Source: Paenibacillus sp. FSL R7-0273
Lineage (GTDB): Bacteria > Bacillota > Bacilli > Paenibacillales > Paenibacillaceae
Assembly: GCF_000758625.1 (NCBI RefSeq)
Contig: NZ_CP009283.1
Coordinates: 5,713,501 to 5,777,500, forward strand
DNA: 64,000 nt
Direction: 5' to 3'
Numbering within the stretch: position 1 is the stretch's first letter; each line of letters begins with the position of its first letter. The position numbers and the translations under genes were made by a program. Below are positions 12,620-39,523 of the stretch, one piece after another. A model generated the notes under the pieces. That model did no database searches, had not been told where the DNA came from, and was given only the letters and a program-made list of their open reading frames with translations.

Positions 12620-12756
12620 GGGCGGAGTGATGAGCGGGTGAATATTCTGGATGAGTGTGTGGGGCAGTAGGCGACAAAGTCAGGGTTTAGCTGAAAGGTA
12701 GGCTGGATAGTTAGTTAAGAGTAACCAGTCTTTTTGCCTCTCATTTCACACTTTTC
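12620..12756. repeat. Direct repeat copy 1 (137 bp, offset 302 bp)
   Basis: This stretch recurs at 12922-13058 with a constant 302-bp offset and only scattered substitutions. It contains the phrases GGGGCAGTAGGCGACAAAG and GATAGTTAGTTAAGAG and runs into the 51-bp dyad repeat. Confidence 0.85.
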
Positions 12757-12792
12757 CCCACATCCGCCGGAATCAGAGGCATTTTTGCCTCT
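12736..12792. repeat. 51-bp dyad repeat, single unit (array 1a)
   Basis: One full unit from GCCTCT (12736) to GCCTCT (12787) is present. The dyad AGAGGCATTTTTGCCTCT at 12775-12792 is a perfect 6-bp stem with a 6-base loop. A 33-bp pyrimidine-rich spacer joins neighbouring dyads. Confidence 0.85.
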
Positions 12793-12807
12793 ATTGCGAC
12801 GGGCGAC

Positions 12808-12945
12808 GGGCGGAGTGCTTAGCGCGTGACTTTGGCGAGTGCGTCGGGCGGAGTGCTGAGCACGTGAGTTTGGTGAGTGCGTCGGGCGGAGTGCTGAGCG
12901 CGTGAGTTCGGTGAATGTGTCGGGTGGAGTGCTGAGCTGGTTAGT
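12808..12945. repeat. 38-bp tandem repeat, four units
   Basis: GGGCGGAGTGCT-type starts fall at 12808, 12846, 12884 and 12922, exactly 38 bp apart. The last unit forms the beginning of the second copy of the 302-bp offset repeat, so the 38-bp expansion seems to sit inside the larger duplication. Confidence 0.85.
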
Positions 12946-13058
12946 ATTCTGGATGAGTGTGTGGGGCAGTAGGCGACAAAGTCAGAGTTTAGCTGAAAGG
13001 TAGGCTGGATAGTTAGTTAAGAGTAACCAGTCTTTTTGCCTCTCATTTCGCCCAATCT
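12922..13058. repeat. Direct repeat copy 2 (137 bp)
   Basis: This is the second copy of 12620-12756. It leads into a longer, three-unit version of the 51-bp dyad array. Confidence 0.85.
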
Positions 13059-13196
13059 CTCTCATCCGCCGGAATCAGAGGCACTTTTGCCTCTCATTTC
13101 GCCCAATTCCCCTCATCCGCCGGAATCAGAGGCATTTTTGCCTTTCATTTTGCCCATTTCCCCTCATCCGCCGGAATCAGAGGCATTTTTCCCTCT
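13038..13196. repeat. 51-bp dyad repeat array, three units (array 1b)
   Basis: Units begin at 13038, 13089 and 13140 and the next arm falls at 13191, an exact 51-bp step each time. Each unit contains a spacer with CATTTCGCCC, CCTCATCCGCC and GGAATC, then AGAGGC, a T-rich loop, and GCCTCT (or a variant). Because 51 is a multiple of three the array is open in one frame as a 17-residue repeat, but there is no ribosome site and the sister array at 23771 has 52-bp steps, so I read it as a DNA or RNA element. Confidence 0.9.
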
Positions 13197-13325
13197 ATTG
13201 CGACGGTCAACTTTTACCTGGTTACTTGGGGCTGCATAGTTACTTGAGCGCGGAGATGAAACGGTATCTTTTTGCCGGACGGCTACTTATACTAAAAGTA
13301 ATACTGGTTGATGAGGGAGCGCTGC

Positions 13326-14186
13326 ATGAACAGGAACGATTACCTGCCCCAGGGGCTGGAGCCCGGGTTGTTTATGTACAAGTATAAGGTTGAAGATGCG
13401 GAAGCCCATTGGTTTCACGCGCACAGGGGCATTGAAATGCTGTACATTTATAGCGGACATGGCGAAATTATGGCAGAGAATCAGACGTATGCGATCCGGG
13501 ATCACACCCTTGTCTGGTTTCAGCCATATCAGCTGCACCGTGTGCTTGTTCCTGCGGCCGAGGGCCATTCGTATATCCGGACCAATCTGACCTTTGATCC
13601 CGGCTTTTTGGAGCGTTACCTTGCGGCTTTTCCTTTACTGGAGAAGTTTTTCCGCAGCCTGTGGAGGGGAAGCCTGCAGCGTCCGGTTGTATATGACATG
13701 CACAATACGCCGGTTGCCGCTGTGCTGGAGGAATTGCATTACGCCGATAATAGCCCCGCTGCAGACCGAGAAGAAAATATGGGGCTCCTGATGCTCCAGT
13801 TAATCCGTCTGCTGCAAAAAAACATGTCCGGCGTGTTGCCCGAGAATTCCGATAACCAGTCACGCGGAGGTTCGCATGTTGAACGGATTACCGGCTGGCT
13901 GGATGAACACTATAAAGAGCCTTTTAGCCTGGAGACGCTGGCCGCCGCGATGCACCTGTCACCGTACCATATTTCACATTTGTTTAAGGATTATGCCGGG
14001 TTCACCCTGTCTGAATATGTGATACAGCGGCGTGTACGGGAAGCCAGTATTCTGCTCGCCAACACCACCAGGTCTGTTCAGGAGATTGCGGCAGAGGTGG
14101 GCGGCTATTCTCCGTCGTATTTTAGCCAAATGTTCAAAAAGCAAAAAGGAATCTCGCCGGAGAAATACAGAAAGAGCATCCGCTAA
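13326..14186 (+). CDS. AraC family transcriptional regulator with N-terminal cupin
   Basis: This 286-residue regulator has an N-terminal AraC-type cupin (about 20-100, with the metal- or sugar-side stretch H-W-F-H-A-H-R-G-I-E-M-L-Y) and a C-terminal double helix-turn-helix (about 185-284). The second helix-turn-helix contains V-Q-E-I-A-A-E-V-G-G-Y-S-P-S-Y-F-S-Q-M-F-K-K, the family signature. The ATG at 13326 is preferred because GAGGGAG lies six bases before it. It is convergent with the TetR gene, only 10 bases separating the stops. Its targets are unknown; it could serve the neighbouring GH88 gene or the GH94/GH2 operon. Confidence 0.88.
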   Translation: MNRNDYLPQGLEPGLFMYKYKVEDAEAHWFHAHRGIEMLYIYSGHGEIMAENQTYAIRDHTLVWFQPYQLHRVLVPAAEGHSYIRTNLTFDPGFLERYLAAFPLLEKFFRSLWRGSLQRPVVYDMHNTPVAAVLEELHYADNSPAADREENMGLLMLQLIRLLQKNMSGVLPENSDNQSRGGSHVERITGWLDEHYKEPFSLETLAAAMHLSPYHISHLFKDYAGFTLSEYVIQRRVREASILLANTTRSVQEIAAEVGGYSPSYFSQMFKKQKGISPEKYRKSIR

Positions 14187-14196
14187 ACGAAGCTCA

Positions 14197-14775
14197 TTAC
14201 AAATGGGACAACGATACCTCAACCGCATTATCGACAAAAGACCGGTCGGGCCGGGACTTCAGCAATACCGTGATACCGATTAAGGATACAACGAGACTTT
14301 GAGCCAGAGCTTTGGCGTTTGTCTCTTGATTTAGCTCGCCTGACCGGATGCCGCGCTCGAGCGTTTCTTGAAACAGGACGGCAAGGTACATCTGATGCTC
14401 CCGCGTAATAATTTCAAATTTCTCATCATGAGGCGACAGCTCGACCATTGTATTGATGCAAAAGCACCCCAGGCTCCCCTCCCCCGCGTACTCCTCGTCA
14501 ACTAAATTTTTGAAATAATTACGAAAGGCTTCCCGGACAGAATGGTTACTTTCAAGCTTCTTCCGTATCCTTGCGGCGTGCCATTGGGTGTACTTGCGCA
14601 GAGTGGTTTCAAACAGCTGTTTTTTATCGCCAAAAGCTAAATAAAGACTGGGCCGCTGAATCGCCATGGCCGAGGTTAAATCGTTAATAGAAGTAGCCTC
14701 ATAGCCCTTCTCCCAAAAAACACGCATCGCCGCTTGAAGCACCTTTTCCTCGTCAAACTCCCTGAGCCGGACCAT
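14197..14775 (-). CDS. TetR/AcrR family transcriptional regulator
   Basis: This 192-residue regulator starts with a TetR DNA-binding domain (about 8-55) containing V-L-Q-A-A-M-R-V-F-W-E-K-G-Y-E-A-T-S-I-N-D-L and P-S-L-Y-L-A-F-G-D-K-K-Q-L-F. The all-helical remainder should bind an inducer. It is divergent from the MFS transporter gene at 14965, the classical layout of a repressor controlling an efflux pump. Two dyads lie in the shared intergenic region, one near each gene. Confidence 0.9.
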   Translation of the reverse strand: MVRLREFDEEKVLQAAMRVFWEKGYEATSINDLTSAMAIQRPSLYLAFGDKKQLFETTLRKYTQWHAARIRKKLESNHSVREAFRNYFKNLVDEEYAGEGSLGCFCINTMVELSPHDEKFEIITREHQMYLAVLFQETLERGIRSGELNQETNAKALAQSLVVSLIGITVLLKSRPDRSFVDNAVEVSLSHL

Positions 14776-14792
14776 TGTTCACCCTCCATATC

Positions 14793-14806
14793 ATACTACT
14801 TGGTAT
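14793..14806. promoter_or_regulatory. Possible TetR operator near the repressor gene
   Basis: ATAC and GTAT arms flank six bases (ATACTACTTGGTAT), about 20 bases upstream of the tetR start. This is a weak, short dyad. Confidence 0.35.
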
Positions 14807-14861
14807 ATTAAAAATTCTATAATTACGCCGTCGGATTGTCAAACTCCTCTTAAAATTCGCC

Positions 14862-14928
14862 TTGACTATGTTTATTAAAGGAGTTATTTTTATTCCATGC
14901 TTTTTGTACCGATCAGTATATTATACTG
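14862..14928 (+). promoter_or_regulatory. Promoter and candidate TetR operator of the MFS gene
   Basis: TTGACT (14862-14867), 17 bp, TATTTT (14885-14890) form a likely sigma-A promoter. Downstream, CAGTATATTATACTG at 14914-14928 is a perfect 7-1-7 palindrome placed where a bound repressor would block transcription. Confidence 0.6.
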
Positions 14929-14964
14929 TAAAGTACATTTACCATGAGAGGAGTGTGAAACCAT

Positions 14965-16197
14965 TTGGGCAAGCTGCAAATTAGCGAAAAGGCGAGGATA
15001 AAAAAGGGAACGGGGAAACCCGGCACAACTGCCGGACGGCCTGCATCAATGCAGCGTAGTGTAACTTTATTATTCGCCATAGCCTGCGGGCTGTCTGTTG
15101 CAAATGTGTATTACGCCCAGCCGCTGCTGGATGTCATCGCGGAGGAGTTCGCTATAGCCCCTTCATCCGTTGGTATTGTTATCACGGTTACCCAAATTTG
15201 TTATGCGGTTGGCCTTTTTTTGCTGGTGCCCCTTGGCGATATTCTTAACAAGCGGCTGCTGATTCCCGGTCAGATGCTTTTATCCGTGCTGGCCTTATCT
15301 GCGATCTCCTTCGCGCCGGATGTCAGCGTGTTTTTTTCGGGGCTGGCCATTGTGGGGCTATTGGCCGTTGTTACACAAACATTAGTTGCTTATGCTGCAA
15401 CGTTAGCCGCCCCCTCCGAAAGAGGGCGTACGGTTGGAATGGTAACCGGCGGGGTTGTCATTGGTATTTTGCTGGCGAGAACCGCTGCAGGAGTACTGAC
15501 GGACGTAGCAGGCTGGCGCTCGGTCTATCTTCTGTCCGCAGTCTGTATTCTTGCAATTGCAATAATGCTGCTGCGGATCATGCCTCAGGAGGAGCGAAAA
15601 ACCACCCTTAACTATTTCCAGCTGCTGCGTTCCGTACTGGGCATGTATAAAGAAGAGCGTATTTTGCGTATCCGCTCCTTGCTTTGCATGTTCATTTTTG
15701 CCGCTTTCAGCATCTTGTGGACTTCACTTGTGTTACCGCTCAGCCAGCCTCCGCTGTCACTGTCTCACTCTGCCATCGGAGCCTTCGGCTTAGCCGGAGT
15801 TGCCGGGGCGTTAGGGGCAACCCGTGCCGGACGGCTGGCCGACCGCGGATATGGACAAATCACAACCGGAATTGCGCTCGTGCTGCTCCTCTTTTCCTGG
15901 CTGCCTATCAGCTATACGGAGCGCTCCCTGGCAGCGCTTGTTATCGGAATCTTAGTTCTGGACATGGCTGTTCAGGCGGTACATGTTACGAATCAGAGTA
16001 TGATTTTTAATGTGCGTCCCGAGGCCCGCAGCCGTCTCACCGCCGCTTATATGATCTTTTATTCAATCGGCAGCTCAGCCGGCTCTATTGCCGCAACAGG
16101 CATGTACGCCTATGCCGGGTGGAACGGAGTATGCTGGCTCGGAGCCGGTGTAAGTGCACTTGCTCTATTATTCTGGGCCATAACCAGACGTAAATAA
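14965..16197 (+). CDS. MFS transporter (probable drug/metabolite efflux)
   Basis: This 410-residue protein has about twelve transmembrane helices and the major facilitator pattern. The first helix region reads A-C-G-L-S-V-A-N-V-Y-Y-A-Q-P-L-L, the loop between helices 2 and 3 is P-L-G-D-I-L-N-K-R, and G-A-T-R-A-G-R-L-A-D-R-G-Y lies in the second half. I take the TTG at 14965 because AGAGGAG lies 11 bases upstream; an ATG 28 codons later is the alternative. Control by the divergent TetR regulator is likely. The substrate is unknown. Confidence 0.88.
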   Translation: MGKLQISEKARIKKGTGKPGTTAGRPASMQRSVTLLFAIACGLSVANVYYAQPLLDVIAEEFAIAPSSVGIVITVTQICYAVGLFLLVPLGDILNKRLLIPGQMLLSVLALSAISFAPDVSVFFSGLAIVGLLAVVTQTLVAYAATLAAPSERGRTVGMVTGGVVIGILLARTAAGVLTDVAGWRSVYLLSAVCILAIAIMLLRIMPQEERKTTLNYFQLLRSVLGMYKEERILRIRSLLCMFIFAAFSILWTSLVLPLSQPPLSLSHSAIGAFGLAGVAGALGATRAGRLADRGYGQITTGIALVLLLFSWLPISYTERSLAALVIGILVLDMAVQAVHVTNQSMIFNVRPEARSRLTAAYMIFYSIGSSAGSIAATGMYAYAGWNGVCWLGAGVSALALLFWAITRRK

Positions 16198-16221
16198 TTA
16201 AGCAGGCAGCAACCACAAAGA

Positions 16222-16272
16222 ACCGCCCTTAGGCAAATGGAAGGCTAAACAGCCATTTTGCTTAAGGGCGGT
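16222..16272. terminator. Hairpin between convergent MFS and GH94 genes
   Basis: ACCGCCCTTA and TAAGGGCGGT form a 10-bp stem, extended by partly paired GCAAA/TTTTGC bases. No long T tract follows, so it may act as a weak bidirectional terminator. Confidence 0.5.
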
Positions 16273-16320
16273 ATGCTCAAACACTAAATACAGTCCGTTG
16301 AATAAGATAAGCCTGTTGTT

Positions 16321-18714
16321 CTACAGAACGACCTCAACCTTGACGGATGAGCGTCCGGGATATGCAGGAAGTATGTTGCCTTCCAGCAGTACGCCGTCGG
16401 CGGTGATGCTTTTGACACCTTTGCAGACCTTATTGGCATTGGTAACCGAGATATCGTAGACGCAGCCCCGGAAACGCCGCTTGACCGTGAACCCTTCCCA
16501 GTCAGCCGGAATGCACGGGTCGATGGACAGCCCATTCAATACCGGCTTTACCCCGAGAATATACTGGGTAACAGCCACGTACATCCAGGCAGCGGTACCG
16601 GTCAGCCAGGAGACGTTAGCCAATCCGAACTTGTCGGACTCCGGCCCGAACAGGTTGGAGGCATAGACATAAGGCTCGGCTTTGTAGCGCCACAAGCCCG
16701 CTTTGTCCATGGCAACATTCGGCAGCAGCTGGCGGTAATATTTATAAGCCAGATCCCCGCGGCCCAGCAGGCATTCCGCGATAATCGCCCAGGTGTTGGC
16801 GTGGCAGAAGACAGCTCCGTTCTCTCCAGTCCCCTTGTTGTAATTGGTCAGAGGGTCGGCAGGATCGGGGAAGGTGGTGATGGACGGGTGGATTTTTTTG
16901 ATGCCGAGCTCGGTGTCCAGCATTTCCCGCACACTGTCCATCGCCTGCAGCCCCTTATCGACGTCTGCCATACCGGAGATGGTGGCCCAGGTCTGGGCGT
17001 TAAGCCAGATTTTGGCCTCGTCGTGTTCATCGCTGCCGAGGAACCGGCCGTCATCCATGATCGCCCGGCGGAACCAGCGGCCGTCCCAGCCGATGCTGTT
17101 GACCAGCTCACGCTGAAGCTCATACATTGCCCCGTACCGGACGGTATCCTCCGGATGCCCGGCAGCCGCGGCAAGGTCAATCATCCGCAGCAGTACGGTT
17201 CCGAGCTGCATCGAGGTCCAGATGCTTTCCCCTTTTCCCTCGCGGCAGACCCGGAACAGCTGGTCATTCCAGTCCGAGCGCAGCATCAGCGGAAAACCAC
17301 GGGAGCCAAGCTGGGAGGCCGTAAAATCTATAGCCGCCCGTAGATGCTCATATACTGTACCCTCACCGCCGTCATAATAAGGCACCTTTGCCTGCAGGAA
17401 CGCAGCATCCCCTGTCTCCGCCAGCAGGTCCCAGGCCGAAAGCGCCGTCCACAGATGATCATCCGAGTGAATGCTCGTTACTGGCTCCCAGCCCTCGTTC
17501 GGGAAGAAATAATGGTTCACATGCCCGTCCCTGTACTGCTGGCCGAGCAGCAGCTTCAGCTTGTCTAAAGCAAGCTCCGTATCAAAGGGCACAACCGAGA
17601 GTATATCCTGGGCCGTATCCCGGTAGCCTACACCGCGGAACGTCCCGGTCGCATAAAAGGAAATATTGCGTGAAAATAAAAAGTTGCGGTGCGCCTGATA
17701 CGGATTCCAGATATTGATCATCCGCTCGGCGTCCTGATCCGGCAGCCGGCTCTCCCAGGCGCCCAGGTAGCCGGACCAGTTCTCCTTTAGCGCCTGGAAG
17801 GAGGCTTCTACAAATCCGGCTTCCCTGGAATGGAATATAGCCCGCGACACCTCCGTCTCATCAGTTGCCGTACCGAGAAACACATTGATCGTCCGGCTCT
17901 CTCCCGGCTGAAGCGTAACATTGAACTGCAGCGCGCCGCACGGGTCGCCGCCCAGCAGCGTCGATCCGGTACAGCCGCCATTCTCGATTGCGGCCGGATT
18001 GGTTTCACTGCGGTAGCTGCCGATAAACTCCTCACGGTCACCGTCATAGCCGGCAAGCGGTGTATCCGCAGCCAGATAGACAAGCGGCGTCTCCTCAGGC
18101 TTCGGCTGGTTCTCCACCCCGTAACGGTAGACCAGGGCCTCACCCTCATGATACTGCACAGACACCTGATGCTTGTTATAGCACTGCCACTGCAGCTCAC
18201 GCATAAATTCCATCATCCCGAATTCAGCGTAAGCGTAGACCTTCAGCTCTTTTGCTTCGGTCCCTTCATTAGTCAGGTTCAGATTCCAGATCAGCGAGTT
18301 CTCATGCGGTCCGACAAAATACACCGTCCGGGCCGCGATACCGCCGCGCTTTGCCTCAAAGCGGGTGTAGCCCATCCCGTGGGCGCTTTTCCATTCCTCG
18401 GGCTTATCCAGGGCGGGCTCGCTGGTCGGGCACCAGTAGCTGCCCGTCTTGGCATCCTGAACATAGATGTACGGGCCGGAACGGTCCATCGGCAGATGGA
18501 AGAAACGGTAGCGTGTAATCCGCCAGATCTGGGGCGACTTATAAAATGCCACCCCTCCGCCGGCATGCGACAGCATCGTATGGAAGGTGCCGTTCGACAG
18601 ATAGTTCATCCACGGCGTCGGCATGTCATGCCGCTTGAATTCGACCTCTTTTTCCTCATCCCTGAAGGTATAGTATGCTTTCGAATCGTTATTTCTGGTA
18701 AGCTCCGCATTCAC
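16321..18714 (-). CDS. GH94 family glycoside phosphorylase (cellobiose phosphorylase-like)
   Basis: This 797-residue protein has the size and layout of GH94: an N-terminal beta-sandwich (about 1-280), a helical linker and an (alpha/alpha)6 barrel. The catalytic general acid is expected in S-D-W-N-D (residues 480-484), the family motif. Substrate-site blocks include R-G-V-G-Y-R-D-T-A-Q-D, W-E-P-V-T-S-I-H-S-D-D-H-L-W and N-G-A-V-F-C-H-A-N-T-W. GH94 enzymes use phosphate to split beta-linked disaccharides such as cellobiose, laminaribiose or chitobiose, releasing a sugar-1-phosphate and saving ATP. No signal peptide is present. It lies 31 bases after the GH2 gene, so the two probably act in sequence. 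The acceptor sugar could be a uronic acid given the setting, but this is a guess. Confidence 0.88.
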   Translation of the reverse strand: MNAELTRNNDSKAYYTFRDEEKEVEFKRHDMPTPWMNYLSNGTFHTMLSHAGGGVAFYKSPQIWRITRYRFFHLPMDRSGPYIYVQDAKTGSYWCPTSEPALDKPEEWKSAHGMGYTRFEAKRGGIAARTVYFVGPHENSLIWNLNLTNEGTEAKELKVYAYAEFGMMEFMRELQWQCYNKHQVSVQYHEGEALVYRYGVENQPKPEETPLVYLAADTPLAGYDGDREEFIGSYRSETNPAAIENGGCTGSTLLGGDPCGALQFNVTLQPGESRTINVFLGTATDETEVSRAIFHSREAGFVEASFQALKENWSGYLGAWESRLPDQDAERMINIWNPYQAHRNFLFSRNISFYATGTFRGVGYRDTAQDILSVVPFDTELALDKLKLLLGQQYRDGHVNHYFFPNEGWEPVTSIHSDDHLWTALSAWDLLAETGDAAFLQAKVPYYDGGEGTVYEHLRAAIDFTASQLGSRGFPLMLRSDWNDQLFRVCREGKGESIWTSMQLGTVLLRMIDLAAAAGHPEDTVRYGAMYELQRELVNSIGWDGRWFRRAIMDDGRFLGSDEHDEAKIWLNAQTWATISGMADVDKGLQAMDSVREMLDTELGIKKIHPSITTFPDPADPLTNYNKGTGENGAVFCHANTWAIIAECLLGRGDLAYKYYRQLLPNVAMDKAGLWRYKAEPYVYASNLFGPESDKFGLANVSWLTGTAAWMYVAVTQYILGVKPVLNGLSIDPCIPADWEGFTVKRRFRGCVYDISVTNANKVCKGVKSITADGVLLEGNILPAYPGRSSVKVEVVL

Positions 18715-18745
18715 CGGGCTTCAGCTCCTCTATAATGTAATGGGG

Positions 18746-23725: not shown

Positions 23726-23770
23726 ACATCTGCTACCCCACTATTAGGTAAGGATTTCAGCGCCTGACCA

Positions 23771-24175
23771 CTCTAGCTATCGCAGGCCTAATTAACGGGA
23801 TTTCTACCGTTATTTCAGTCTCCTCCAGCCATCGCAGGCAAATTAACGGGATTTTTACCGTTATTTCTGCCCCCTCCAGCTATCGCAGGCCTAATTAACG
23901 GGATTTCTACCGTTATTCCGGCCCTCTCCAGCCATCGCAGGCCGATTTAACGGGATTTTTACCGTTATTTCTGCCCACTCCAGCCATCACAGGCCTAATT
24001 AACGGGATTTCTACCGTTATTCCGGCCCTCTCCAGCCATCGCAGTCCGATTTAACGGGATTTCTACCGTTATTTCCACCCACTCCAGCCATCGCAGGCTG
24101 ATTTAACGGGATTTCTACCGTTATTTCTGCCCTCTCCAGCCACGGCAGGCTGATTTAACGGGATTTCTACCATTA
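23771..24175. repeat. 52-bp dyad repeat array, eight units (array 2)
   Basis: TAACGGGA starts fall at 23793, 23844, 23896, 23948, 24000, 24052, 24104 and 24156, that is steps of 51 once and 52 six times. The dyad is AACGG, GATTTCTA (or GATTTTTA), CCGTT. The spacer contains ATTTCTGCCC, CTCCAGCCATCGCAGG and a TAATT or GATT end. The last unit is degenerate. There are no reading frames worth calling, and the 52-bp step shifts frame. Confidence 0.92.
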
Positions 24176-24179: not shown

Positions 24180-24333
24180 CATCCAGATTCAACGTTTCTC
24201 TCCCCGTCTCAGCCCTTCCTCCCTACTTTTCCAGCCCTCTTGCTCCTACACACTCCTCACCAAATCTCCCCCGCCCTTCCCTGCTCCTACCCACTCCCAC
24301 TAACTCTCCCCGCTCTTCCGTTACCCCAGAAAC
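24180..24333 (-). other. C-rich (minus strand G-rich) intergenic tract with G-quadruplex potential
   Basis: The plus strand is almost pure pyrimidine. 24268-24298 contains five C-runs of three to five bases, so the minus strand (the sense strand of the gene ending at 24387) has GGG, GGG, GGG, GGG and GGGGG separated by short loops (one of about eight bases). I see no gene here. Confidence 0.5.
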
Positions 24334-30749: not shown

Positions 30750-30763
30750 TGTCTGGCACCTCC

Positions 30764-31811: not shown

Positions 31812-31882
31812 AGAATAGCGCAGCAGCAGGCATTTACGGTACTGTACAATCGCAAGAATGCTGTAAATCCGGGCTGTACAGT
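31812..31882 (-). promoter_or_regulatory. Regulated promoter region of the importer operon, CTGTACA repeats
   Basis: CTGTACA occurs at 31842 and 31874 and CTGTAAA at 31861. The outer two form the inverted arms ACTGTACA and TGTACAGT. A minus-strand -10 candidate TATTCT lies just left at about 31812-31817 without a good -35 box, fitting activation by the AraC-type regulator encoded upstream. Confidence 0.45.
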
Positions 31883-31935
31883 TCCCTGATTTCTGTTCCG
31901 GGCAGAGGCGTGCTGCCGCTGTGCGGCAAAAGGCC

Positions 31936-31974
31936 AAAAAGGCCCGCTGAATGAAAAAATCTCACTCGCGGGCC
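31936..31974 (-). terminator. Terminator after the transmembrane AraC regulator
   Basis: On the minus strand GGCCCGC and GCGGGCC arms, with TGA/TTCA partly paired inside, are followed by TTTTTGG. The hairpin starts 14 bases after the stop codon at 31988. Confidence 0.85.
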
Positions 31975-31987
31975 CGGCACTCCGTTC

Positions 31988-34333
31988 TTATTTGCTGCGG
32001 TCAATGGCTGATTTCAGGCGGTATTCCTTCGGGGTCGTCCCGTATCGGCGTTTGAACAGCCGGTAAAAATAGCTTTCGTTGCCGAAGCCGACCTTCTCCA
32101 TAATCTCTGTCACGGTCAAATCCTTCTGCTCCAGATAATCCCTGGCATAGGCCAGGCGAGCCGCATTGATCTGGTCAACCACCGTTATACCCTCCTGCGC
32201 CTTGAACACCTGGCCCAGATAAACGGAGCTCATCTTCAGCATGTCGGCAATCCGCTGCACATTGAGATCCGGGTCGGCATAGTGCCGGTCGATAATCTCC
32301 TTCACGGTTTCGGCCAGCAGACGGCTCTTGTCCTCGCGGCCGCTCCGCCGCTGCTCGGCAACCTCGCGCACGACCTCCAGCAGCACGGCTTCTATTTCGT
32401 CAAGCGTCTCTTTCTCCAGAATCCGCCGGTTAATCGCCTGCAGATTGACGGATACGGGATTGACGTTATGGCTGTTCATCTCACCTAATGTGTTGCTCAG
32501 GGTAACTGCCAGATGCAGCACCGCCGAGAACATATTCTCGTAGCTGAAGCTGCCGAGCAGCTCCCGCCAGCTGCGGATCGCCTGCTCCGTCTCCTGCAGA
32601 TCGCCGCCCTTCAGCCCTTCCATCAGCTGCCGCTCCAGCTCCTGCGGGATGCGCAGCGTCTCATTCTGCTCATTCTCAAGCAGATTCTCCGGCTCAAGCA
32701 CCGCCCCCTTGCCGTAGATCATCCGGTAATGGGAATGGCGGACCGCCAGATTATAATACCGGGTAATGCTGCGGTAGTCCGTAAACACATCACTGAGCGT
32801 AACCGTAAAGGTAATGCGGTAATAAGTCTGAACCGTTTGCTGAAGCTCTCTGAATTTCTCGCCCAGCTGCTCCAGCGCCCCGGCTCCGCCGCTTTCACTG
32901 CCTCCACCTGCTGCGCTTTCCCTGCTGCCTACGATAAAGACGAGATGCCCGCTTTTCATGTCTACAGCTTCGCATGAACCGTCCTGGCGCAGCAGTTCCT
33001 GGCCGATATTGGCGATGGCAAAATACAGCAGGGACTCCATCGCAGCGCCCTGGCCGGCGGCAAGCCCCTGAAGATCGTCAATCTGCACCAGAGCCAGCCG
33101 CAGCGGGGCCGGATAAGCAATATCTAAGCCATACTGCTCCCTGATCTGCAGGAACGCACTCTCGTCTACACTCCCGCTTGCCCCGACCAGGCTGCGCAGC
33201 TGGTACACCTTGGCGATATTCGACTGTGAGGCCCGCTCCTGCTCAAGCCCCTTCAGCTTGCCGATCATCTCGGTTACATTGGCCGCAATCAGCGACAGCT
33301 CATCCTGGCCCTGCGGGGCACCGCGTTCATTCTGCGGCACCAGCGTCAGCAGCTGGCCCACCGGCTTATACAGCCGCAGTGAAAAGAACACGGACAGCAT
33401 GACCGCAAGCAGAACCACAGACAGCGTGACCGCCACCTCAGTCCACTTCATCTGCCGCACGCTGCCCAGCACCACATCATAATCCTGCAGGCTGACAATC
33501 TGCCAGTTATTCAGCGCCTTGCTTAAATAAGTGACCTTGTATTTCCGGTCTTCATGATTGTAGATAAAGGAATCCACCGGCTTCTCCGACGGCGTGAGCC
33601 GCGGCAGCAGATCCTGCCTGATGTTAAGCCCTGCTGGCAGCAGCCCGTCGGTCGAAATCAGCACCTCGCCCTCACTGTCGGTAATGAACAGCACATCATT
33701 TTGCCGCTCCGCCACCAGATTAAGCGCTTTCACGTTATCCAGCATCCAGTCCGGCTTCACCGTCAGAATCAGCACATTGTCATTAATGGAGCCCAGCGCC
33801 TCCCCGTCATAGAGAAAAAAGGCAAACACGTCGATCCCGTCGTTCTTGCCGTCAAGATCCAGAGGAATCAGCTGCAGCTTTGGCAGGTCGGACCTTGAGG
33901 CCATATAGCTCTCCAAAGCCCCATACAAGGTACTGTTATTAATGTCATGATTCAGTGACGAGAAGAACCGCTGCTGCGCGCCGTTATAAAAGACTGCGGC
34001 GTGCAGATACGGCGATGAGGCAACGGTATGATTCAATCGTTCAATTTTTAGAATGCTCTGCCTGTAATCTGCACCTGACTTCAGCGCGAGCAGCTCTTCG
34101 TCGTTGTACAGCGATACGGCCAAATCCCTCACGATGCCGTTCATATTCTCAACGTTATAGTTGATCTGGGTCAGCAGCTTCCGGTCAGCTTCATTCTGCA
34201 GGCTGAGCACCCGGCTGCGGGCACTGGCATTCAAAAAAAGCGAGGCAACAGCAAGTGTGGCAACCACCAGCATAAAGCTGAGCAAAATCCGCTGCAGATA
34301 TTTGCGTGACCGGATCGTCTGGAGTACATTCAT
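31988..34333 (-). CDS. Transmembrane AraC family regulator (sensor plus helix-turn-helix)
   Basis: This 781-residue protein joins a membrane sensor to a DNA-binding domain. It has one helix at about 14-34, an extracytoplasmic Cache-like domain, a second helix near 290-315, a linker, a middle region resembling a degenerate GGDEF fold, and a C-terminal AraC double helix-turn-helix (about 680-775) with V-T-E-I-M-E-K-V-G-F-G-N-E-S-Y-F-Y-R-L-F-K-R. This is the layout found next to Lpl-type importers in Paenibacillus, where it is thought to sense an extracellular sugar signal and activate the importer. The ATG follows GGGGGAG. It has its own strong promoter with flanking GGTSACC elements. Confidence 0.88.
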   Translation of the reverse strand: MNVLQTIRSRKYLQRILLSFMLVVATLAVASLFLNASARSRVLSLQNEADRKLLTQINYNVENMNGIVRDLAVSLYNDEELLALKSGADYRQSILKIERLNHTVASSPYLHAAVFYNGAQQRFFSSLNHDINNSTLYGALESYMASRSDLPKLQLIPLDLDGKNDGIDVFAFFLYDGEALGSINDNVLILTVKPDWMLDNVKALNLVAERQNDVLFITDSEGEVLISTDGLLPAGLNIRQDLLPRLTPSEKPVDSFIYNHEDRKYKVTYLSKALNNWQIVSLQDYDVVLGSVRQMKWTEVAVTLSVVLLAVMLSVFFSLRLYKPVGQLLTLVPQNERGAPQGQDELSLIAANVTEMIGKLKGLEQERASQSNIAKVYQLRSLVGASGSVDESAFLQIREQYGLDIAYPAPLRLALVQIDDLQGLAAGQGAAMESLLYFAIANIGQELLRQDGSCEAVDMKSGHLVFIVGSRESAAGGGSESGGAGALEQLGEKFRELQQTVQTYYRITFTVTLSDVFTDYRSITRYYNLAVRHSHYRMIYGKGAVLEPENLLENEQNETLRIPQELERQLMEGLKGGDLQETEQAIRSWRELLGSFSYENMFSAVLHLAVTLSNTLGEMNSHNVNPVSVNLQAINRRILEKETLDEIEAVLLEVVREVAEQRRSGREDKSRLLAETVKEIIDRHYADPDLNVQRIADMLKMSSVYLGQVFKAQEGITVVDQINAARLAYARDYLEQKDLTVTEIMEKVGFGNESYFYRLFKRRYGTTPKEYRLKSAIDRSK

Positions 34334-34352
34334 GGGTTCACTCCCCCTGCGC

Positions 34353-34412
34353 TTAGGTGACCTAACTATAATCCCGGCTGATTTTGCCTGTCAATCCGTC
34401 CTTTGGGTCACC
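34353..34412 (-). promoter_or_regulatory. Strong sigma-A promoter with two GGTSACC elements
   Basis: On the minus strand TTGACA (34389-34394), 17 bp, TTATAG (34366-34371) form a near-consensus promoter for the transmembrane AraC gene. The 6-1-6 palindrome TTAGGTGACCTAA (34353-34365) covers the start point, and GGTCACC at 34406-34412 lies about 50 bp upstream. The pair suggests autoregulation. Confidence 0.6.
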
Positions 34413-34441
34413 TTTGGTTATTCCCGGCACACATCCGGCCA

Positions 34442-35155
34442 TCATTCCGTCTCTGCACCAAAGAGCTCCTGTAAAAGCGTATGCGCTATAACTCCGTGAC
34501 CCGAGGCATCCGGATGTATCCCGTCACCGTAACGGTAAGCGGCGTTAAGCGTCCGCTCCTGCCTGATGTGCTTCAGCAGCGGCGTGCGCAGGTCAATGAC
34601 CTGATCAGCCGGACAGCCGCCGGATAACAGCCAGCCCGCATAATGCTCCAGCACCCGGTCGTAATCCTTGTAGGGTTCCAGATAGCTGAAGCCGTCCGCC
34701 TCCGCAGGCAGCAGCAGGCCGTTCATGGAGAGGGCATCGAACGGCGGCGGGGTCAGCAGAACCACCTTGGCTCCGGCTTCATGGATTTGTGCGCTCAGCC
34801 GCCTCATTCCGTCCTGATAGGCGGTGAATCTTTCAGCGGAGTAAGGATGATAGATTCCGTCATTCATTCCGTAACAGGCCACGACTACATCCGGGGAGGC
34901 TTCGGCAAGCTCCCTTGTGAGCCGCTCGTGGATACACGGCCGCGGAAACGGATGTGCCGCTTCGCTGAGTCCCGAGGCCGTCTCGCTCGGCACTCCCCAT
35001 GCCGACAGCCGGACTCCTGGGTGCGGCCGGTGCTCCTTCAGCCATTCTCCGGCCAGCCGGATATATTGACCGTCAGCCGTGATGCTGTCTCCAAGAAACA
35101 GGACGTGCGGCTGTACGGAATTCTGGTTTTCTTTATCAGTAAATAAATGCAGCAT
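34442..35155 (-). CDS. SGNH/GDSL family hydrolase (probable carbohydrate esterase)
   Basis: This 237-residue enzyme has all SGNH blocks: Ser24 in F-L-G-D-S-I, Asn98 in Y-G-M-N-D, and the Asp211/His214 pair in G-D-G-I-H-P-D. The family removes acetyl or other acyl groups, often from polysaccharides. No signal peptide is seen, so it should act on imported oligosaccharides. The start is fixed by CAGGAGGG. It stands alone on the minus strand behind a promoter that shares a 37-bp motif with the GH2/GH94 operon, so it belongs to the same regulon by that evidence. Confidence 0.88.
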   Translation of the reverse strand: MLHLFTDKENQNSVQPHVLFLGDSITADGQYIRLAGEWLKEHRPHPGVRLSAWGVPSETASGLSEAAHPFPRPCIHERLTRELAEASPDVVVACYGMNDGIYHPYSAERFTAYQDGMRRLSAQIHEAGAKVVLLTPPPFDALSMNGLLLPAEADGFSYLEPYKDYDRVLEHYAGWLLSGGCPADQVIDLRTPLLKHIRQERTLNAAYRYGDGIHPDASGHGVIAHTLLQELFGAETE

Positions 35156-35221
35156 GCTTTTCCCTCCTGACAATTACGCGAAGGCGTGTGGCTTCCCTTA
35201 CGGCGGTATGCCCGCAACCTA

Positions 35222-35282
35222 ATGGTAGCGCTGCCTGCCCTTTTCCGCCTTGACGATATCGCCCTTCCTTAGCATAATATTG
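35222..35282. promoter_or_regulatory. Shared 37-bp motif (copy B), cre-like site and divergent promoters
   Basis: 35246-35282 repeats the motif of 23689-23725. On the minus strand TACCAT (35222-35227) lies 19 bp from it, exactly as TAACAT does in copy A, and would serve the SGNH gene. On the plus strand TTGACG (35250-35255), 17 bp, CATAAT (35273-35278) would start transcription at or one base before the ATG at 35285. TGGTAGCGCTGCCT at 35223-35236 resembles a cre site with its last base changed. Confidence 0.55.
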
Positions 35283-35284
35283 CC

Positions 35285-36163
35285 ATGACAACCAAATTAT
35301 TAGCGCGGGACATCGGACTTGAGCCCGGATTTACCTTCCGGATCCAGAAATGTCCGCTGACGCATGATTACTATGTACACAGCCATGATTTTTCTGAGCT
35401 TGTCGTCATTCTGTCGGGAAGCGCCGTGCATATCATCGAAGGGAGAGAGTATCCGGTTACGGCCGGCCAGGTTTTTCTGATCCACAGCGGTGTTTCCCAT
35501 GGTTACAAGAATGTCGAGGACATTGAGTATGTGAACGTTATGTTTCAGCCCGAGGAGCTGCTGCAGCAGCCCGAGCTCAGGCTGCTTCCGGGCTTCCAGG
35601 CGCTGTTCTACATCGAGCCCTTTTACCGTCAGGAGATGTATTTCAAAGGCATGCTTACGCTGGATGCCGAGCAGCTGCTGGAGGCTACACGGCTGCTTGA
35701 TCTGATTCTGGGTGAACATGAGCGCAGGGAGGATGGCTACCGGCTGATGGTCCGCACCTATTTTACCGCCCTGGTGGGCATGCTCTCCCGTTATTATCAG
35801 AACAGCAGCGGGCGCGAGGACAACAAGGCGCTGCGGATCGGTGAGGCGGTTACCTATATTGAGGAGCATTTCCTTCAGCCGGTTACCCTGCAATCCATGG
35901 CAGATATGGCTTATATGTCAACCCGCCAGTTTCTGAGGGTCTTCACCCGTAACTACAAAACCACGCCCATGGACTATGTCATCCGCAAGCGGCTGGACTA
36001 TTCCTGCACGCTGCTGCGGAATCCGGACCTTCCGGTATCCCGGGTGGCCATGGACAGCGGCTTCCATGACCAGAACTATTACGCCCGCCAGTTCCGCAAA
36101 TTATATAACTGCACGCCAACCGAATACCGTGAACGGATCAGCGGCTCCGGGGAAGAGGGATAA
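35285..36163 (+). CDS. AraC family transcriptional regulator (RhaS/RhaR-like cupin type), possibly leaderless mRNA
   Basis: This 292-residue regulator has an N-terminal cupin (about 15-90; H-S-H-D-F-S-E-L-V-V-I-L-S-G and H-S-G-V-S-H-G-Y) as in sugar-binding RhaR-like proteins. A C-terminal double helix-turn-helix (about 185-285) includes V-S-R-V-A-M-D-S-G-F-H-D-Q-N-Y-Y-A-R-Q-F-R-K. No Shine-Dalgarno sequence precedes the ATG; instead a -10 box lies 7-12 bases before it, so the transcript may begin at the start codon. Its gene abuts the next, convergent AraC gene with touching stop codons. It may control the divergent SGNH gene and, through the shared motif, the GH2/GH94 operon. Confidence 0.88.
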   Translation: MTTKLLARDIGLEPGFTFRIQKCPLTHDYYVHSHDFSELVVILSGSAVHIIEGREYPVTAGQVFLIHSGVSHGYKNVEDIEYVNVMFQPEELLQQPELRLLPGFQALFYIEPFYRQEMYFKGMLTLDAEQLLEATRLLDLILGEHERREDGYRLMVRTYFTALVGMLSRYYQNSSGREDNKALRIGEAVTYIEEHFLQPVTLQSMADMAYMSTRQFLRVFTRNYKTTPMDYVIRKRLDYSCTLLRNPDLPVSRVAMDSGFHDQNYYARQFRKLYNCTPTEYRERISGSGEEG

Positions 36164-37069
36164 TTACTCCCTGCCCTCTCCTGCGGCGGCGGCTTCCTCC
36201 CGCTGGCGCTGCCGCCGCCGGTAGGCTGCTGGAGTCACGCCGAATCTTGCGCTGAACAGCCGGGTCAGATAATTCACATCACGGATGCCTATCCTTTCAG
36301 CAATATCCGATACACTGAGTACGGTACCGCTGAGCAGCTTCTTGGCTTCCTCCAGCCGCCGCTGCAGCACATACTGCAGCGGCGTTGTGCCGATATGCTG
36401 CTTCATGCATCTCGTAATATAATCCGCTTGGAAATGCAGCTCCTCCTGCAGCCCCGTCACCTGAAACGGCTCCTTCCAATGCCTGTCGAGATAAGCCGCC
36501 GCTGCCCGGGCCAGCCGGACCGCCGGCTCCGGCAGCGCCGTGCGGGCGCATTCCGCCTGCAGCGCCGCCATCAGCTCAGCCAGGAGAACGTGGAGCCGCA
36601 GGGCATTTTCGGCATTCAGCCGGCTGTGAATCTCGTTCATCTCATCCAGAATCGGCTCCAGCGCCTCTACGTCTACGGCAGCAAATTTCGGCATATACAG
36701 CCGCTGCTGCGCAGAGGGCTCCTCATCCTCTACCGTTCCTTTGGCCAGCAGTGCAGACCAGGGAATCTCCTCCTGCAGAATATAAGCCGGCTTCCCCTCA
36801 TGGATGAAATGCACCCAGTAAATCTCCGTATCCTCTTCACATACCCGGTAGCCCTCGTGCGGCAGCCCTGCTTCAAGCACAAGCAGCCTGCCCGGGCCGA
36901 TTGCATATTCCTTCCCCTGTTCAGCCATATAGAGCGTTCCTCGCTTAACCAGCAGCAGATCATATACCCCGAAGGTACGGGCAAAATGCCGGTCACCCGG
37001 CGACCAGACGGCCAGCCCCACCGTGACAAACTTTGGCAGCGGCGGAATCGTAAATTCCAGACAGAGCAC
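36164..37069 (-). CDS. AraC family transcriptional regulator
   Basis: This 301-residue regulator has an N-terminal cupin-like part (about 10-90, with L-P-H-E-G-Y) and a C-terminal double helix-turn-helix (about 190-285) with V-S-D-I-A-E-R-I-G-I-R-D-V-N-Y-L-T-R-L-F-S-A-R-F-G. The start is GTG behind AAGGAGGGG. A short Ala/Glu/Arg-rich tail follows the DNA-binding domain. It is divergent from the GHL6-type glycosidase at 37203 and shares a control region with a cre-like site, so it is likely to regulate that enzyme. Confidence 0.88.
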   Translation of the reverse strand: MLCLEFTIPPLPKFVTVGLAVWSPGDRHFARTFGVYDLLLVKRGTLYMAEQGKEYAIGPGRLLVLEAGLPHEGYRVCEEDTEIYWVHFIHEGKPAYILQEEIPWSALLAKGTVEDEEPSAQQRLYMPKFAAVDVEALEPILDEMNEIHSRLNAENALRLHVLLAELMAALQAECARTALPEPAVRLARAAAAYLDRHWKEPFQVTGLQEELHFQADYITRCMKQHIGTTPLQYVLQRRLEEAKKLLSGTVLSVSDIAERIGIRDVNYLTRLFSARFGVTPAAYRRRQRQREEAAAAGEGRE

Positions 37070-37115
37070 TGTATCCCCTCCTTATCTCAAAGTCGGTTTT
37101 GTGCTATTTCAAGTC

Positions 37116-37140
37116 TATAATATCACTGGTAGCGCTTGCA
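37116..37140. promoter_or_regulatory. TATAAT box and cre-like catabolite control site
   Basis: TATAAT at 37116-37121 lies between the two divergent genes. TGGTAGCGCTTGCA at 37127-37140 fits the CcpA consensus TGNNARCGNNNNCA and would sit just downstream of a plus-strand start or overlap the minus-strand promoter. Confidence 0.5.
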
Positions 37141-37202
37141 GAAAAGAGGTACATTGACTGGGAATCGCTTTATATCCAATTTCTATAAGGGGCTGTTCAT
37201 CC

Positions 37203-39191
37203 ATGCGTTTCCGTCAGGTTCATCTCGACTTCCATACCTCCGAGGCCATTCCCGGCATCGGAAAAGATTTCAGCAAAGCCCAGTTCCAGTCCATGCTGCG
37301 CGCCGGCCATGTCGATTCCATCACTGTATTCTCCAAATGCCATCACGGCTGGGCCTACCATCCCAGCGAAGCCAATGAGATCCATCCGCATCTTGATTTC
37401 GATCTGCTGGGGGAAATGATTGAGGCTGCCCACGAAATAGGGGTCCGTACACCAGTCTATTTATCTGCCGGCCTGGACGAAAAGCTGGCCCGCCGTCATC
37501 CCGAATGGCTGATCCGCGACGCGGAGGACCGCACGCGCTGGGTGAAGGATTTCATGACGCCGGGCTACCATGAGTTCTGCCTGGGCACGCCTTATCTGGA
37601 TATTCTGCTGGCCCAGCTTCATGAGGTGGTCACCCGTTACGATGCGGACGGCATCTTCCTCGACATCGTCGGCGCACGCAAATGCCGCTGCCAGTACTGC
37701 GTCGCTGCCCTGCTTGCAGAGGGCAAGGACCCGCGTGACGAAGACGCCGCCCGCCGCCTGGGCGAGCAGACTTACCTCAACTATGCGCGCCGCGTCCGCG
37801 AGACCATCGATGCCGTGAAGCCCGGCCTGCCGGTCTATCACAACAACGGCCATCAGCAGCGGGGCCGGCGGGACCTCGTCCATGTCAACACTCACCTTGA
37901 GCTGGAATCGCTCCCGACCGGGGGCTGGGGCTACGACCACTTTCCGCTGTCCGCCCGTTATGCCCAGCCGCTCGGCCTGGAATTTCTCGGCATGACCGGC
38001 AAATTTCATACCTCCTGGGGCGAATTCGGCGGCTACAAGCATCCGAACGCGCTGCGCTATGAAGCCGCGCTCAGCCTCGCCCACGGCGCGAAGTGCTCCA
38101 TCGGCGACCAGCTTCACCCGTCCGGCCTGATGGATGAGGCCACTTATGCCCTGATCGGAGCCGCCTATACCGAGGTCGAGGCGAAGGAGCCGTGGTGCAG
38201 CGGCGTTACCTCCGTCGCCGACATCGCCGTCCTGTCCCTGGAGGCTGCGCGCGAAGCCTGCCCCGGCGGCGAGGCGCTGAAGGGGACACGCAACAATCTG
38301 GCCGATGCCGGAGCGGTGCGCATCCTGACCGAAGGCCATTATCTGTATGACATTGTCGATACAGATAGCGACTGGTCAGCATACAAGGTGCTGGTGCTGC
38401 CGGATGAGGTGCCGGTCTGGCCTGAGCTGGCGGCAGCTATTGCCGCCTTTACCTCCGCAGGCGGCAAAGTGCTGGCTACCGGCAGGTCCGGCCTGAACCC
38501 GGCCGGGGATGCTTTTGCGCTGGAGCTGGGAGTGAGCTGGCTGGGAACGAATACGTACCGCCCGTCCTATTTCCGTCCGCACTTCACTCCCGGTGCGCTG
38601 CAGCCCGCTTCCTTTGTTATGTACGGCGAGGGTCACCTGGTGGAGCTGAACGGCGGGAACTCCCTCGGCCATCTGGAGAATCCGTATTTCAACCGGGATG
38701 TCTTCACCTTCTGCTCGCATCAGCATACACCGGGTGCCCGTGAGGACAACGGGCCGGCCATGGTCGAAAGCGGCAGCGGAATCTACATCGCCTGGGATGT
38801 ATTCAGCGAATATGCGGACGGCGGCCATCTTATTCTGAAGGCGATGGTGCTCCATGCGCTGTCCCGGCTGCTGCCGCAGCCAGTCCTCAGCACCAGCCTC
38901 CCGGCGCGGGGCATCACCACCCTGCAGTATCAGCAGGCTGAGCGCCGCTACGTGAATCACCTGCTCTATGCTGCTCCGGCGCTGAAGGGCCGCATCGAGG
39001 TGATCGAGGACATCGTGCCGCTGCGCGATATCTCCGTCAGCCTGCGGCTCCCGTCCGCTGCAGGCGTCAAGCGGGTCTATCTGGCCCCGGCGATGAGTGA
39101 GCTGCCGTTCACGGCAGACCAGGACGGCGGGATCACTTTCACTGTCCCGCAGCTTGAGAATCACCAGATGGCTGTGATCGAGCTGGCTTAG
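37203..39191 (+). CDS. GHL6-type putative glycosidase with beta-galactosidase trimerisation-like domain
   Basis: This 662-residue protein starts with a TIM-barrel domain (about 5-340) that matches hypothetical glycosyl hydrolase 6 (GHL6). Family landmarks are H-L-D-F-H-T, the acidic block D-A-D-G-I-F-L-D-I-V with Asp154, and a C-R-C-Q-Y-C cluster at 161-166 that could bind metal. The middle part (about 345-540) has the look of the GH42 trimerisation domain, and a sandwich domain closes the chain. No signal peptide is present. Known relatives are poorly characterised, so the substrate is open. AAGGGGC precedes the ATG. A strong hairpin terminator follows the gene. Confidence 0.75.
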   Translation: MRFRQVHLDFHTSEAIPGIGKDFSKAQFQSMLRAGHVDSITVFSKCHHGWAYHPSEANEIHPHLDFDLLGEMIEAAHEIGVRTPVYLSAGLDEKLARRHPEWLIRDAEDRTRWVKDFMTPGYHEFCLGTPYLDILLAQLHEVVTRYDADGIFLDIVGARKCRCQYCVAALLAEGKDPRDEDAARRLGEQTYLNYARRVRETIDAVKPGLPVYHNNGHQQRGRRDLVHVNTHLELESLPTGGWGYDHFPLSARYAQPLGLEFLGMTGKFHTSWGEFGGYKHPNALRYEAALSLAHGAKCSIGDQLHPSGLMDEATYALIGAAYTEVEAKEPWCSGVTSVADIAVLSLEAAREACPGGEALKGTRNNLADAGAVRILTEGHYLYDIVDTDSDWSAYKVLVLPDEVPVWPELAAAIAAFTSAGGKVLATGRSGLNPAGDAFALELGVSWLGTNTYRPSYFRPHFTPGALQPASFVMYGEGHLVELNGGNSLGHLENPYFNRDVFTFCSHQHTPGAREDNGPAMVESGSGIYIAWDVFSEYADGGHLILKAMVLHALSRLLPQPVLSTSLPARGITTLQYQQAERRYVNHLLYAAPALKGRIEVIEDIVPLRDISVSLRLPSAAGVKRVYLAPAMSELPFTADQDGGITFTVPQLENHQMAVIELA

Positions 39192-39240
39192 GGCAGTACA
39201 GGGATTACACCGCAGCACAAGCTCCCCTCTCCTTGCATGC

Positions 39241-39286
39241 AAAAGGCAGCAGCCCGAGACTAAATAGTCTAAGGCTGCTGCTTTTA
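39241..39286. terminator. Hairpin terminator after GHL6-type gene
   Basis: AAGGCAGCAGCC (39243-39254) pairs with GGCTGCTGCTT (39273 on), with an inner GACTA/TAGTC stem, followed by TTTTACTTA. A-rich bases on the left allow function on the other strand. Confidence 0.85.
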
Positions 39287-39336
39287 CTTACTATGTTTTT
39301 CGAATATCACCCGGAGGAGGATGCTCCCAGCAACAT

Positions 39337-39523
39337 TTAGTTTGATTTTCGCCACCTAATTCCCTCATTCCCCCGAATCTGCAGTAATTAGCTGTAAAAA
39401 CGCCAGTTAAATCGGGCAATTTACCGCTCCGCCAGCATTTCCGGCGAAATTAAGTAACCTTTTTCCAGCTAAAGTTCCGTTAGCAGGCTTCACCGGAGAA
39501 TTAACTGACTATTTTCCAGTTAA
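39337..39523. repeat. 51-bp dyad repeat array, four units (array 3)
   Basis: TTA-starting dyads of 23 bp begin at 39337, 39388, 39450 and 39501, giving steps of 51, 62 and 51. The best unit has TTAACTG and CAGTTAA arms around ACTATTTTC. 62 is 51 plus one helical turn. The first spacer contains TTTCGCC, AATTCCC, TCAT and GAATC, resembling the spacer of array 1. The array fills the space between two convergent genes; 39524-39646 shows nothing further. Confidence 0.7.

What the first reader, a model, noticed from the sequence alone, without database searches (positions are those of the whole stretch)
12736..39523. Three distant intergenic arrays share a 51-52 bp period and a spacer scaffold but carry different, co-varied dyads
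Arrays at 12736-13196, 23771-24175 and 39337-39523 repeat every 51, 52 and 51 bp (one step of 62, which is one helical turn more). Each unit is a short dyad with a T-rich centre plus a 28-34 bp spacer. The dyads differ: AGAGGC/GCCTCT, AACGG/CCGTT and TTAACTG/CAGTTAA, so both arms have changed together. The spacers of arrays 1 and 3 both show TTTCGCC, AATTCCC, TCAT and GAATC in order, and array 2 shows ATTTCTGCCC and ATCGCAGG in comparable places. A constant frame with an exchangeable, self-complementary core, phased to five helical turns, looks like a family of modular protein-binding or RNA hairpin arrays. I do not know a described element of this kind.
Basis: partly seen in the sequence, partly recalled or inferred. 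Interest (0 to 1): 0.85.

Follow-up and report, generated by a model that had tools for sequence, protein, structure and literature searches.

The report
Fork-oriented palindrome arrays in Paenibacillus
A group of soil bacteria carries, between its genes, many short tandem arrays of a palindrome repeated almost exactly every 51-52 bases, and nearly all of those examined point the same way relative to how the chromosome is copied, whichever way the neighbouring genes point.

Summary
Arrays 1 and 2 are real; array 3 is something else. Arrays 1 (period 51) and 2 (period 52) belong to a large intergenic family in this 7.29-Mb genome: 66 arrays, 435 units in 1.63 Mb examined. Three dyad classes share one frame. 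Dyad-to-dyad spacing is 50-52 bp in 580 of 585 steps under 98 bp, although spacers of different arrays are only 40% identical.

Best-scoring listed clusters in four related genomes obeyed it in 75 of 75 cases, one skew map having been predicted beforehand. Other methods show exceptions there.

Arrays persist at orthologous sites while unit number changes, and 7 of 8 copies of an IS3-like element lie in them. Array 3 is one copy of a dispersed ~190-bp repeat that is not orientation-locked. Arms co-vary between classes but not at the most variable arm position.

Closest known: tandem REP arrays. Function is unproven; I favour protein-binding arrays with fork-imposed polarity.

The parts
13033..13196 (+). 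Array 1, class I (AGAGGC-ATTTTT-GCCTCT type), period 51, 3.2 copies
   Evidence: TRF; repeats; R1 60.6 bits at 13111-13162
12731..12807 (+). Further class I unit of the same locus, apart from the main array
   Evidence: 73-88% to the other copies; R1 36.5 bits at 12758-12809
12586..13094 (+). 302-bp direct duplication (12586-12792 and 12888-13094, 87% identical) that carries the array 1 units
23764..24175 (+). Array 2, class III (AACGGGATTTCTACCGTT), period 52, 7.9 copies
   Evidence: TRF; 8 profile units, steps 51 then 52 six times; R1 up to 43.1 bits
39330..39534 (+).
   Evidence: 58 matched places in the genome; no tandem signal; no R1 match above noise

Best explanation
Arrays 1 and 2 are members of a Paenibacillus-group family of head-to-tail tandem arrays of a quasi-palindromic unit, REP/BIME-like in habit. 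SHOWN: the unit is a dyad (18-bp core) with a T-rich centre, repeated every 51-52 bp; arrays lie mostly between genes; units are alike within an array; arrays persist at orthologous sites and differ there in unit number; spacing hardly changes while spacers diverge; arms change more slowly than spacers; nearly all arrays examined point the same way relative to the fork, independent of gene strand. INFERRED: the active form is double-stranded DNA. A dimeric protein, not identified, binds each dyad, and the five-turn spacing keeps successive sites on one face of the helix, which is why length is kept where spacer sequence is not. The asymmetric centre and flanks give the array a direction, and only one direction is tolerated or propagated because forks, or proteins travelling with them, pass in one direction. 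Unit number changes by slippage or unequal exchange. An IS3-like element uses the arrays as a landing site.
For: Spacing 50-52 in 580 of 585 steps under 98 bp over five sets, while spacer identity is 0.40 between and 0.75 within arrays. Between 12 orthologous G000/G033 arrays substitutions per site are 0.060 in arms, 0.088 in flanks, 0.125 in the loop, 0.182 in spacers, and both members have period 51 in 11 of 12 pairs (the twelfth has two units in G033). Orientation: 42 of 43 arrays left of the skew switch on '-', 22 of 23 right of it on '+'; between two co-directional genes 25 of 26 obey, one of each 31 of 31, two head-on genes 5 of 6. G064 skew map predicted and borne out; top-listed clusters in four genomes 75 of 75. 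Class III folds barely better than shuffles as a single strand (z -1.1 to -1.6), so a hairpin is not the common active form. IS landing in 7 of 8 copies.
Against: No binding protein is known or was searched for. The spacing deviants (40, 61, 61, 70, 89 bp) are too few to show helical phasing. Exceptions to orientation: 4112095, an inverted block in G090 L153 and mixed hits in G064 L129, a G064 array at 4449392 with its T-rich centre on the other strand; 1875233 and 4624304 carry A-rich centres. Positions turn over between species, and R1 finds nothing in 38 of 81 genomes of the genus, so no essential role is likely. Constant length could also be inherited from a common ancestor.
Confidence: 0.42

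Rival explanations
1. Satellite DNA without function whose orientation is a by-product of replication: structures on the discontinuously copied strand let units expand in one orientation and collapse in the other, as known for CTG/CAG repeats (recalled, no call). Template switching would keep dyads palindromic.
For: Unit number differs at orthologous sites; one unit against 4.6 units with the same flanks after hemY; one against three units in the two halves of the array 1 duplication; orientation follows replication, not genes; units are alike within arrays.
Against: It does not explain why the period stays 50-52. It predicts many solo remnants, but one of 479 profile hits in 1.63 Mb is a true solo. 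Computed DNA hairpin energies do not favour the T-centre strand (-8.5/-8.6, -8.0/-8.6, -11.1/-13.4 kcal/mol for the two strands). Class III folds weakly.
Confidence: 0.35
2. RNA hairpin arrays, transcribed and acting as stabilisers, decoys or terminators.
For: Class I and II units fold well as single strands (z -4.7 to -7.2 with DNA parameters); convergent gaps are enriched (23 of 63 arrays against 80 of 411 gaps over 150 bp, p 0.005).
Against: Orientation ignores the strand of both neighbours; class III barely folds; G-T and A-C mismatches in arm pairs 3-9 are about balanced (150 and 182 cells), so no strand is favoured; no Rfam family other than rRNA and tRNA in the window.
Confidence: 0.08
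3. Mobile single-stranded DNA of the REP/RAYT or IS200/IS605 kind, inserted with lagging-strand bias.
For: Strand bias relative to the fork; dispersed palindromes; presence/absence differences between species. PF01797 occurs in some related array-bearing genomes (G003 6, G007 9, G009 1 matches).
Against: No PF01797 match in G000, which has the most hits (controls ring in 5 of 14); almost no solo units; arrays sit at the same sites in two species; no match of one 398-bp class I stretch in phages or plasmids.
Confidence: 0.06
4. Orientation is only strand composition: neutral spacers drift to the skew of their strand.
For: The array strand is pyrimidine-rich (mean 0.606), in the direction of the GC skew.
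Against: Orientation was assigned by homology, and specific asymmetric features are near-fixed (T at centre positions -1 and +1 in 429 and 424 of 435 units), while AT skew is a few per cent in most stretches.
Confidence: 0.05

Closest known systems
Tandem REP arrays / BIMEs, e.g. GI-GIII tandem REP arrays of Pseudomonas fluorescens SBW25 (PMC3116915, section 12 read)
   Same: Extragenic palindromes in regularly spaced arrays; in SBW25 five tandem arrays on one side of the genome are forward and six on the other side reverse; REP elements are targets of IS elements, IS3 family included (PMC1525189 passages).
   Different: Here units are head-to-tail in one orientation, about 51-52 bp, with almost no solo units; BIMEs alternate orientation (PMC2817692 passages); SBW25 spacings are 112 and 72 bp; no Y1 transposase in this genome.
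KOPS / SRS / Chi, polar short chromosomal motifs (recalled)
   Same: Orientation skewed with replication direction.
   Different: Those are short oligomers, also inside genes (recalled); these are tandem palindromic arrays, mostly intergenic.
CRISPR arrays (recalled)
   Same: Repeat with dyad plus spacer of constant length.
   Different: Spacers within an array are alike (0.75 identity) rather than unique.

Membership tests
REP/BIME (REPIN) elements | Extragenic palindromic repeats in more than 100 copies per genome | tested here: met
   435 units in 1.63 Mb; 62 of 66 arrays lie outside ORFs of at least 110 codons, four inside ORFs of 122-214 codons that span the repeat
REP/BIME (REPIN) elements | Regularly spaced copies in alternating orientation (BIME) | tested here: not met
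   Units head-to-tail, 50-52 bp apart
REP/BIME (REPIN) elements | Associated Y1 tyrosine transposase (RAYT) in the genome | tested here: not met
   PF01797: 0 matches in G000; 7 of 21 genomes searched have matches
REP/BIME (REPIN) elements | Target of insertion sequences | tested here: met
   7 of 8 IS3-like copies in arrays, 4-bp duplications
REP/BIME (REPIN) elements | Binding of gyrase, IHF or Pol I | not testable with these tools
   Needs an experiment
CRISPR array | Unique spacers between near-identical repeats | tested here: not met
   Spacer identity within arrays 0.75
KOPS/SRS-like polar motif | Orientation switches at origin and terminus | tested here: met
KOPS/SRS-like polar motif | Recognised by a DNA translocase | not testable with these tools
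   Needs an experiment

The most novel reading that the evidence does not exclude
A new kind of polar chromosome landmark: phased arrays of palindromic protein-binding sites, one orientation per chromosome arm, dispersed around the chromosome, read by a protein that moves with or after the replication fork (segregation, fork passage or chromosome folding), with recognition sequence and protein co-evolving so that the dyad class changes while spacing, centre and polarity stay.
Probability: 0.22. Interest if true: 0.92.

Novelty: new variant of a known kind. Interest (0 to 1): 0.72.

Why it matters
Dispersed bacterial repeats are often treated as debris. Here a family with a nearly invariant period is locked to the direction of DNA replication in several species, independently of gene direction. 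This gives a natural, testable case of how forks shape or use repetitive DNA, a sequence-level readout of replication direction in draft genomes of this group, and a ready set of arrays for finding the protein or process that keeps the spacing.

Tried and rejected
Rejected: array 3 as a member. Coding repeat: 51 is 17 codons but 52 is not a multiple of 3. Y1/RAYT mobility: no PF01797 in G000. Single-strand hairpin as the common active form: class III folds weakly, and the T-centre strand is not the more stable one by computed DNA energies (the class III piece from the window was cut one pair short, the L060 piece was whole). Strand of an RNA structure from G-T against A-C mismatches: no clear preference. 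Helical phasing from spacing deviants: too few to decide. Phage or plasmid carriage: no match for one 398-bp class I stretch in blastn 'distant' mode. Exact IS target point: 2 of 7 in the dyad centre, the others elsewhere in the unit, so regional rather than point targeting (my reading). Literature: nine searches listed no title or abstract that describes such arrays in Paenibacillus; most subscription journals are not held. The P. vortex genome paper (PMC3012674, passages only) counts 231 tandem repeats without describing them in the passages shown.

Limits: 40 of the 100 G000 stretches were chosen because they hold homology hits, so density comes only from the 60 evenly spaced ones (15 clusters in 1.2 Mb, 12 after merging transposon-split pairs). 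Flanking genes are greedy ORFs of at least 110 codons, not annotations, and the IS itself is a neighbour of split arrays. Background gaps include the gaps that hold arrays. Covariance-model listings are cut at about 150 rows, so cross-genome counts cover best-scoring hits only; cluster positions for one search were read off the rows by hand. The 12 orthologous pairs come from two array-selected sets and were compared without gaps by design. My notebook gives wrong left/right counts (45:1 and 19:1); the right ones, recounted, are 42 of 43 and 22 of 23, the total 64 of 66 being unchanged.
Full report
1. What is in the window. Array 1 is a class I array of period 51 at 13033-13196, with one more unit at 12731-12807 in the upstream half of a 302-bp direct duplication. 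Array 2 is a period-52 array of 7.9 copies at 23764-24175. Array 3 is not detected as tandem by TRF or autocorrelation and does not match the covariance model of the family above noise. A genome search places it among 58 matched places of a dispersed repeat; the nine longest other matches cover 169-197 bp at 68-72% identity, on both strands of both arms. Of its 35 rows at E up to 1e-3, self-match included, 26 follow the orientation rule described below and 9 do not.

2. The family in the genome. The window is part of a 7,288,921-bp single contig. A unit of array 1 finds 248 matches there, of which about 150 were listed. I fetched 60 evenly spaced 20-kb stretches. Among TRF periods with at least two copies 51 is the commonest (13 rows, plus 4 of 52), and a profile finds 15 clusters, 12 after merging transposon-split pairs. 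Adding 40 stretches chosen for homology hits and the window gives 66 arrays and 435 units in 1.63 Mb: 43 class I (AAAGGCA-YTTT-TGCCTTT type), 15 class II (AAAGGGATTTTTCCCTTT) and 8 class III (AACGGGAYTTTTACCGTT) by a simple rule. Classes can adjoin in register (1712252-1712987). With a covariance model (R1) the matches at E below 0.01 in the unbiased 1.2 Mb lie in arrays, except a lone unit that is the window's own 12758-12809. A dyad profile gives one true solo among 479 hits in 1.63 Mb; five others listed as solo are array dyads read on the other strand.

3. Spacing. Over five sets (G000, G033, G064, G090, 28 hemY loci) 580 of 585 spacings under 98 bp are 50-52; the others are 40, 61, 61, 70 and 89. 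Spacer identity is 0.40 between and 0.75 within arrays. In 12 orthologous G000/G033 array pairs, compared in register, substitutions per site are 0.060 in arms, 0.088 in flanks, 0.125 in the loop and 0.182 in spacers; both members have period 51 in 11 pairs, the twelfth having two units in G033. So unit length and arms are kept while spacers drift.

4. Do the arms co-vary? Between classes, yes: pair 4 is CG in 41, GC in 15 and GA in 8 of 66 consensi. At pair 8 the sides are independent (AT 30, AC 15, GT 12, GC 9), and pair 10 is mostly a C/C mismatch (35 of 66). On one unit per array, paired cells, double-changed cells and covariation score exceed all 500 shuffles and the slid controls, whereas the number of double-changed pairs (9 against 9.6) and of pair types does not. 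Between orthologous arrays two arm pairs changed on both sides, both staying Watson-Crick, against none at six shifted pairings. The constraint looks more like a purine-pyrimidine palindrome of a given class than like free pairing.

5. Orientation. GC skew turns from positive to negative between 3.91 and 4.01 Mb. Left of it 42 of 43 arrays are on '-', right of it 22 of 23 on '+' (recounted), 64 of 66 in all. One exception (1875233) has by inspection only its T-rich centre inverted; the other (4112095) is inverted as a whole although local skew is negative. Merging transposon-split pairs gives 57 of 59. Neighbouring genes do not explain it: between two co-directional genes 25 of 26 arrays obey, one of each 31 of 31, two head-on genes 5 of 6, and 3 of 3 with one known neighbour; 877 of 1253 ORFs are co-directional. 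Against a 74% bias by gene length, 64 of 66 has probability 8e-7 and 57 of 59 5e-6, while the unbiased 15 of 15 alone gives only 0.011. Convergent gaps are enriched (23 of 63 against 80 of 411, p 0.005) and divergent ones depleted (8 of 63 against 110 of 411, p 0.02).

6. Other genomes. R1 matches 43 of 81 genomes of the genus at E up to 0.01, G000 included. In an order-wide draw 18 of 119 match at E up to 1e-4: 15 in the genus and three outside with 1-2 hits each. In G064 listed hits are '+' at 0.32-1.46 Mb and '-' at 2.98-6.10 Mb. I wrote down the skew this predicts before fetching DNA; the 20 stretches agree (negative up to 2.39 Mb and at 6.47 Mb, positive from 2.73 to 6.13 Mb). Top-listed clusters obey in G064 19/19, G090 26/26, G072 9/9 and G033 21/21 (skew from 20, 20, 10 and 10 stretches). 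Against the rule: an inverted block in G090 (L153), mixed weak hits in G064 (L129), and a 52-bp G064 array (4449392) with its T-rich centre on the other strand.

7. History of arrays. One genome-contig scan with the hemY protein gave 28 named loci, 27 titled Paenibacillus and one Bacillus sp.. Nine carry 50-52-bp TRF arrays; 12 of 13 rows there have a T-rich dyad by eye, all on '-' in contigs of positive skew, though several are orthologous to one another; four species share a further dyad class (TTGTATKNGGTTTTTCNCATACATT, period 52). In the gap after hemY, G000 has a class III array, strain DMB5 a class II array of 4.6 units, P. typhae and PastM-3 one degenerate unit with the same flanks, and P. 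camerounensis, P. ihuae and P. auburnensis none. Twelve of the 19 G033 array loci examined have flanks matching G000 arrays, mostly with other unit numbers. Arrays are thus long-lived but differ in unit number and, over longer times, in class.

8. IS landing. An IS3-like element (orfA with HTH, orfB with rve domains) has 8 full copies. Seven split a 51/52-bp array, each with a 4-bp target duplication. The eighth lies in an array-3-type repeat. In the unbiased sample TRF arrays cover 4,652 of 1.2 million bases, rows possibly overlapping. A different transposase (PF13751, PF05598) splits another array. REP elements of other bacteria are known IS targets, IS3 family included (PMC1525189 passages).

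9. Interpretation. The nearest described thing that I found is the tandem REP array; in P. fluorescens SBW25 five such arrays are forward at about 2 Mbp and six reverse at about 4 Mbp (PMC3116915 section 12). Two usual traits fail here: alternating units and a Y1 transposase (0 in G000). I favour double-stranded protein-binding arrays with a fork-imposed direction, because length is conserved where sequence is not and because class III barely folds as a single strand. A functionless satellite kept in one orientation by replication is nearly as likely. Neither is proven. That no description was found rests on nine searches of an open-access library.

Noticed in passing
G000:C1 243492, 1844244, 1875580, 2347025, 2567253, 4596641, 4880060, 5280487: Eight near-identical IS3-like copies; seven inside 51/52-bp arrays with 4-bp duplications, one inside an array-3-type repeat.
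   Followed up: partly
window 39330-39534: Copy of a dispersed ~190-205-bp repeat with 58 matched places in the genome; its own nature is unexplained.
   Followed up: partly
window 12803-12937: 38-bp G-rich tandem repeat, 3.6 copies, between the two halves of the array 1 duplication.
   Followed up: no
window 24241-24319: 41-bp tandem repeat, 2.0 copies, just beyond array 2.
   Followed up: no
L047 3379-4833 (G000:C1:3647839-3649293): A 484-aa transposase (PF13751, PF05598) also splits an array.
   Followed up: partly
L230 (G033:C1:5710569-5710908): 64-bp tandem repeat, 5.3 copies, about 0.7 kb from a 51-bp array.
   Followed up: no
window 60789-64000: Six tRNA genes, 5S and part of 23S rRNA, all on the minus strand.
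   Followed up: no
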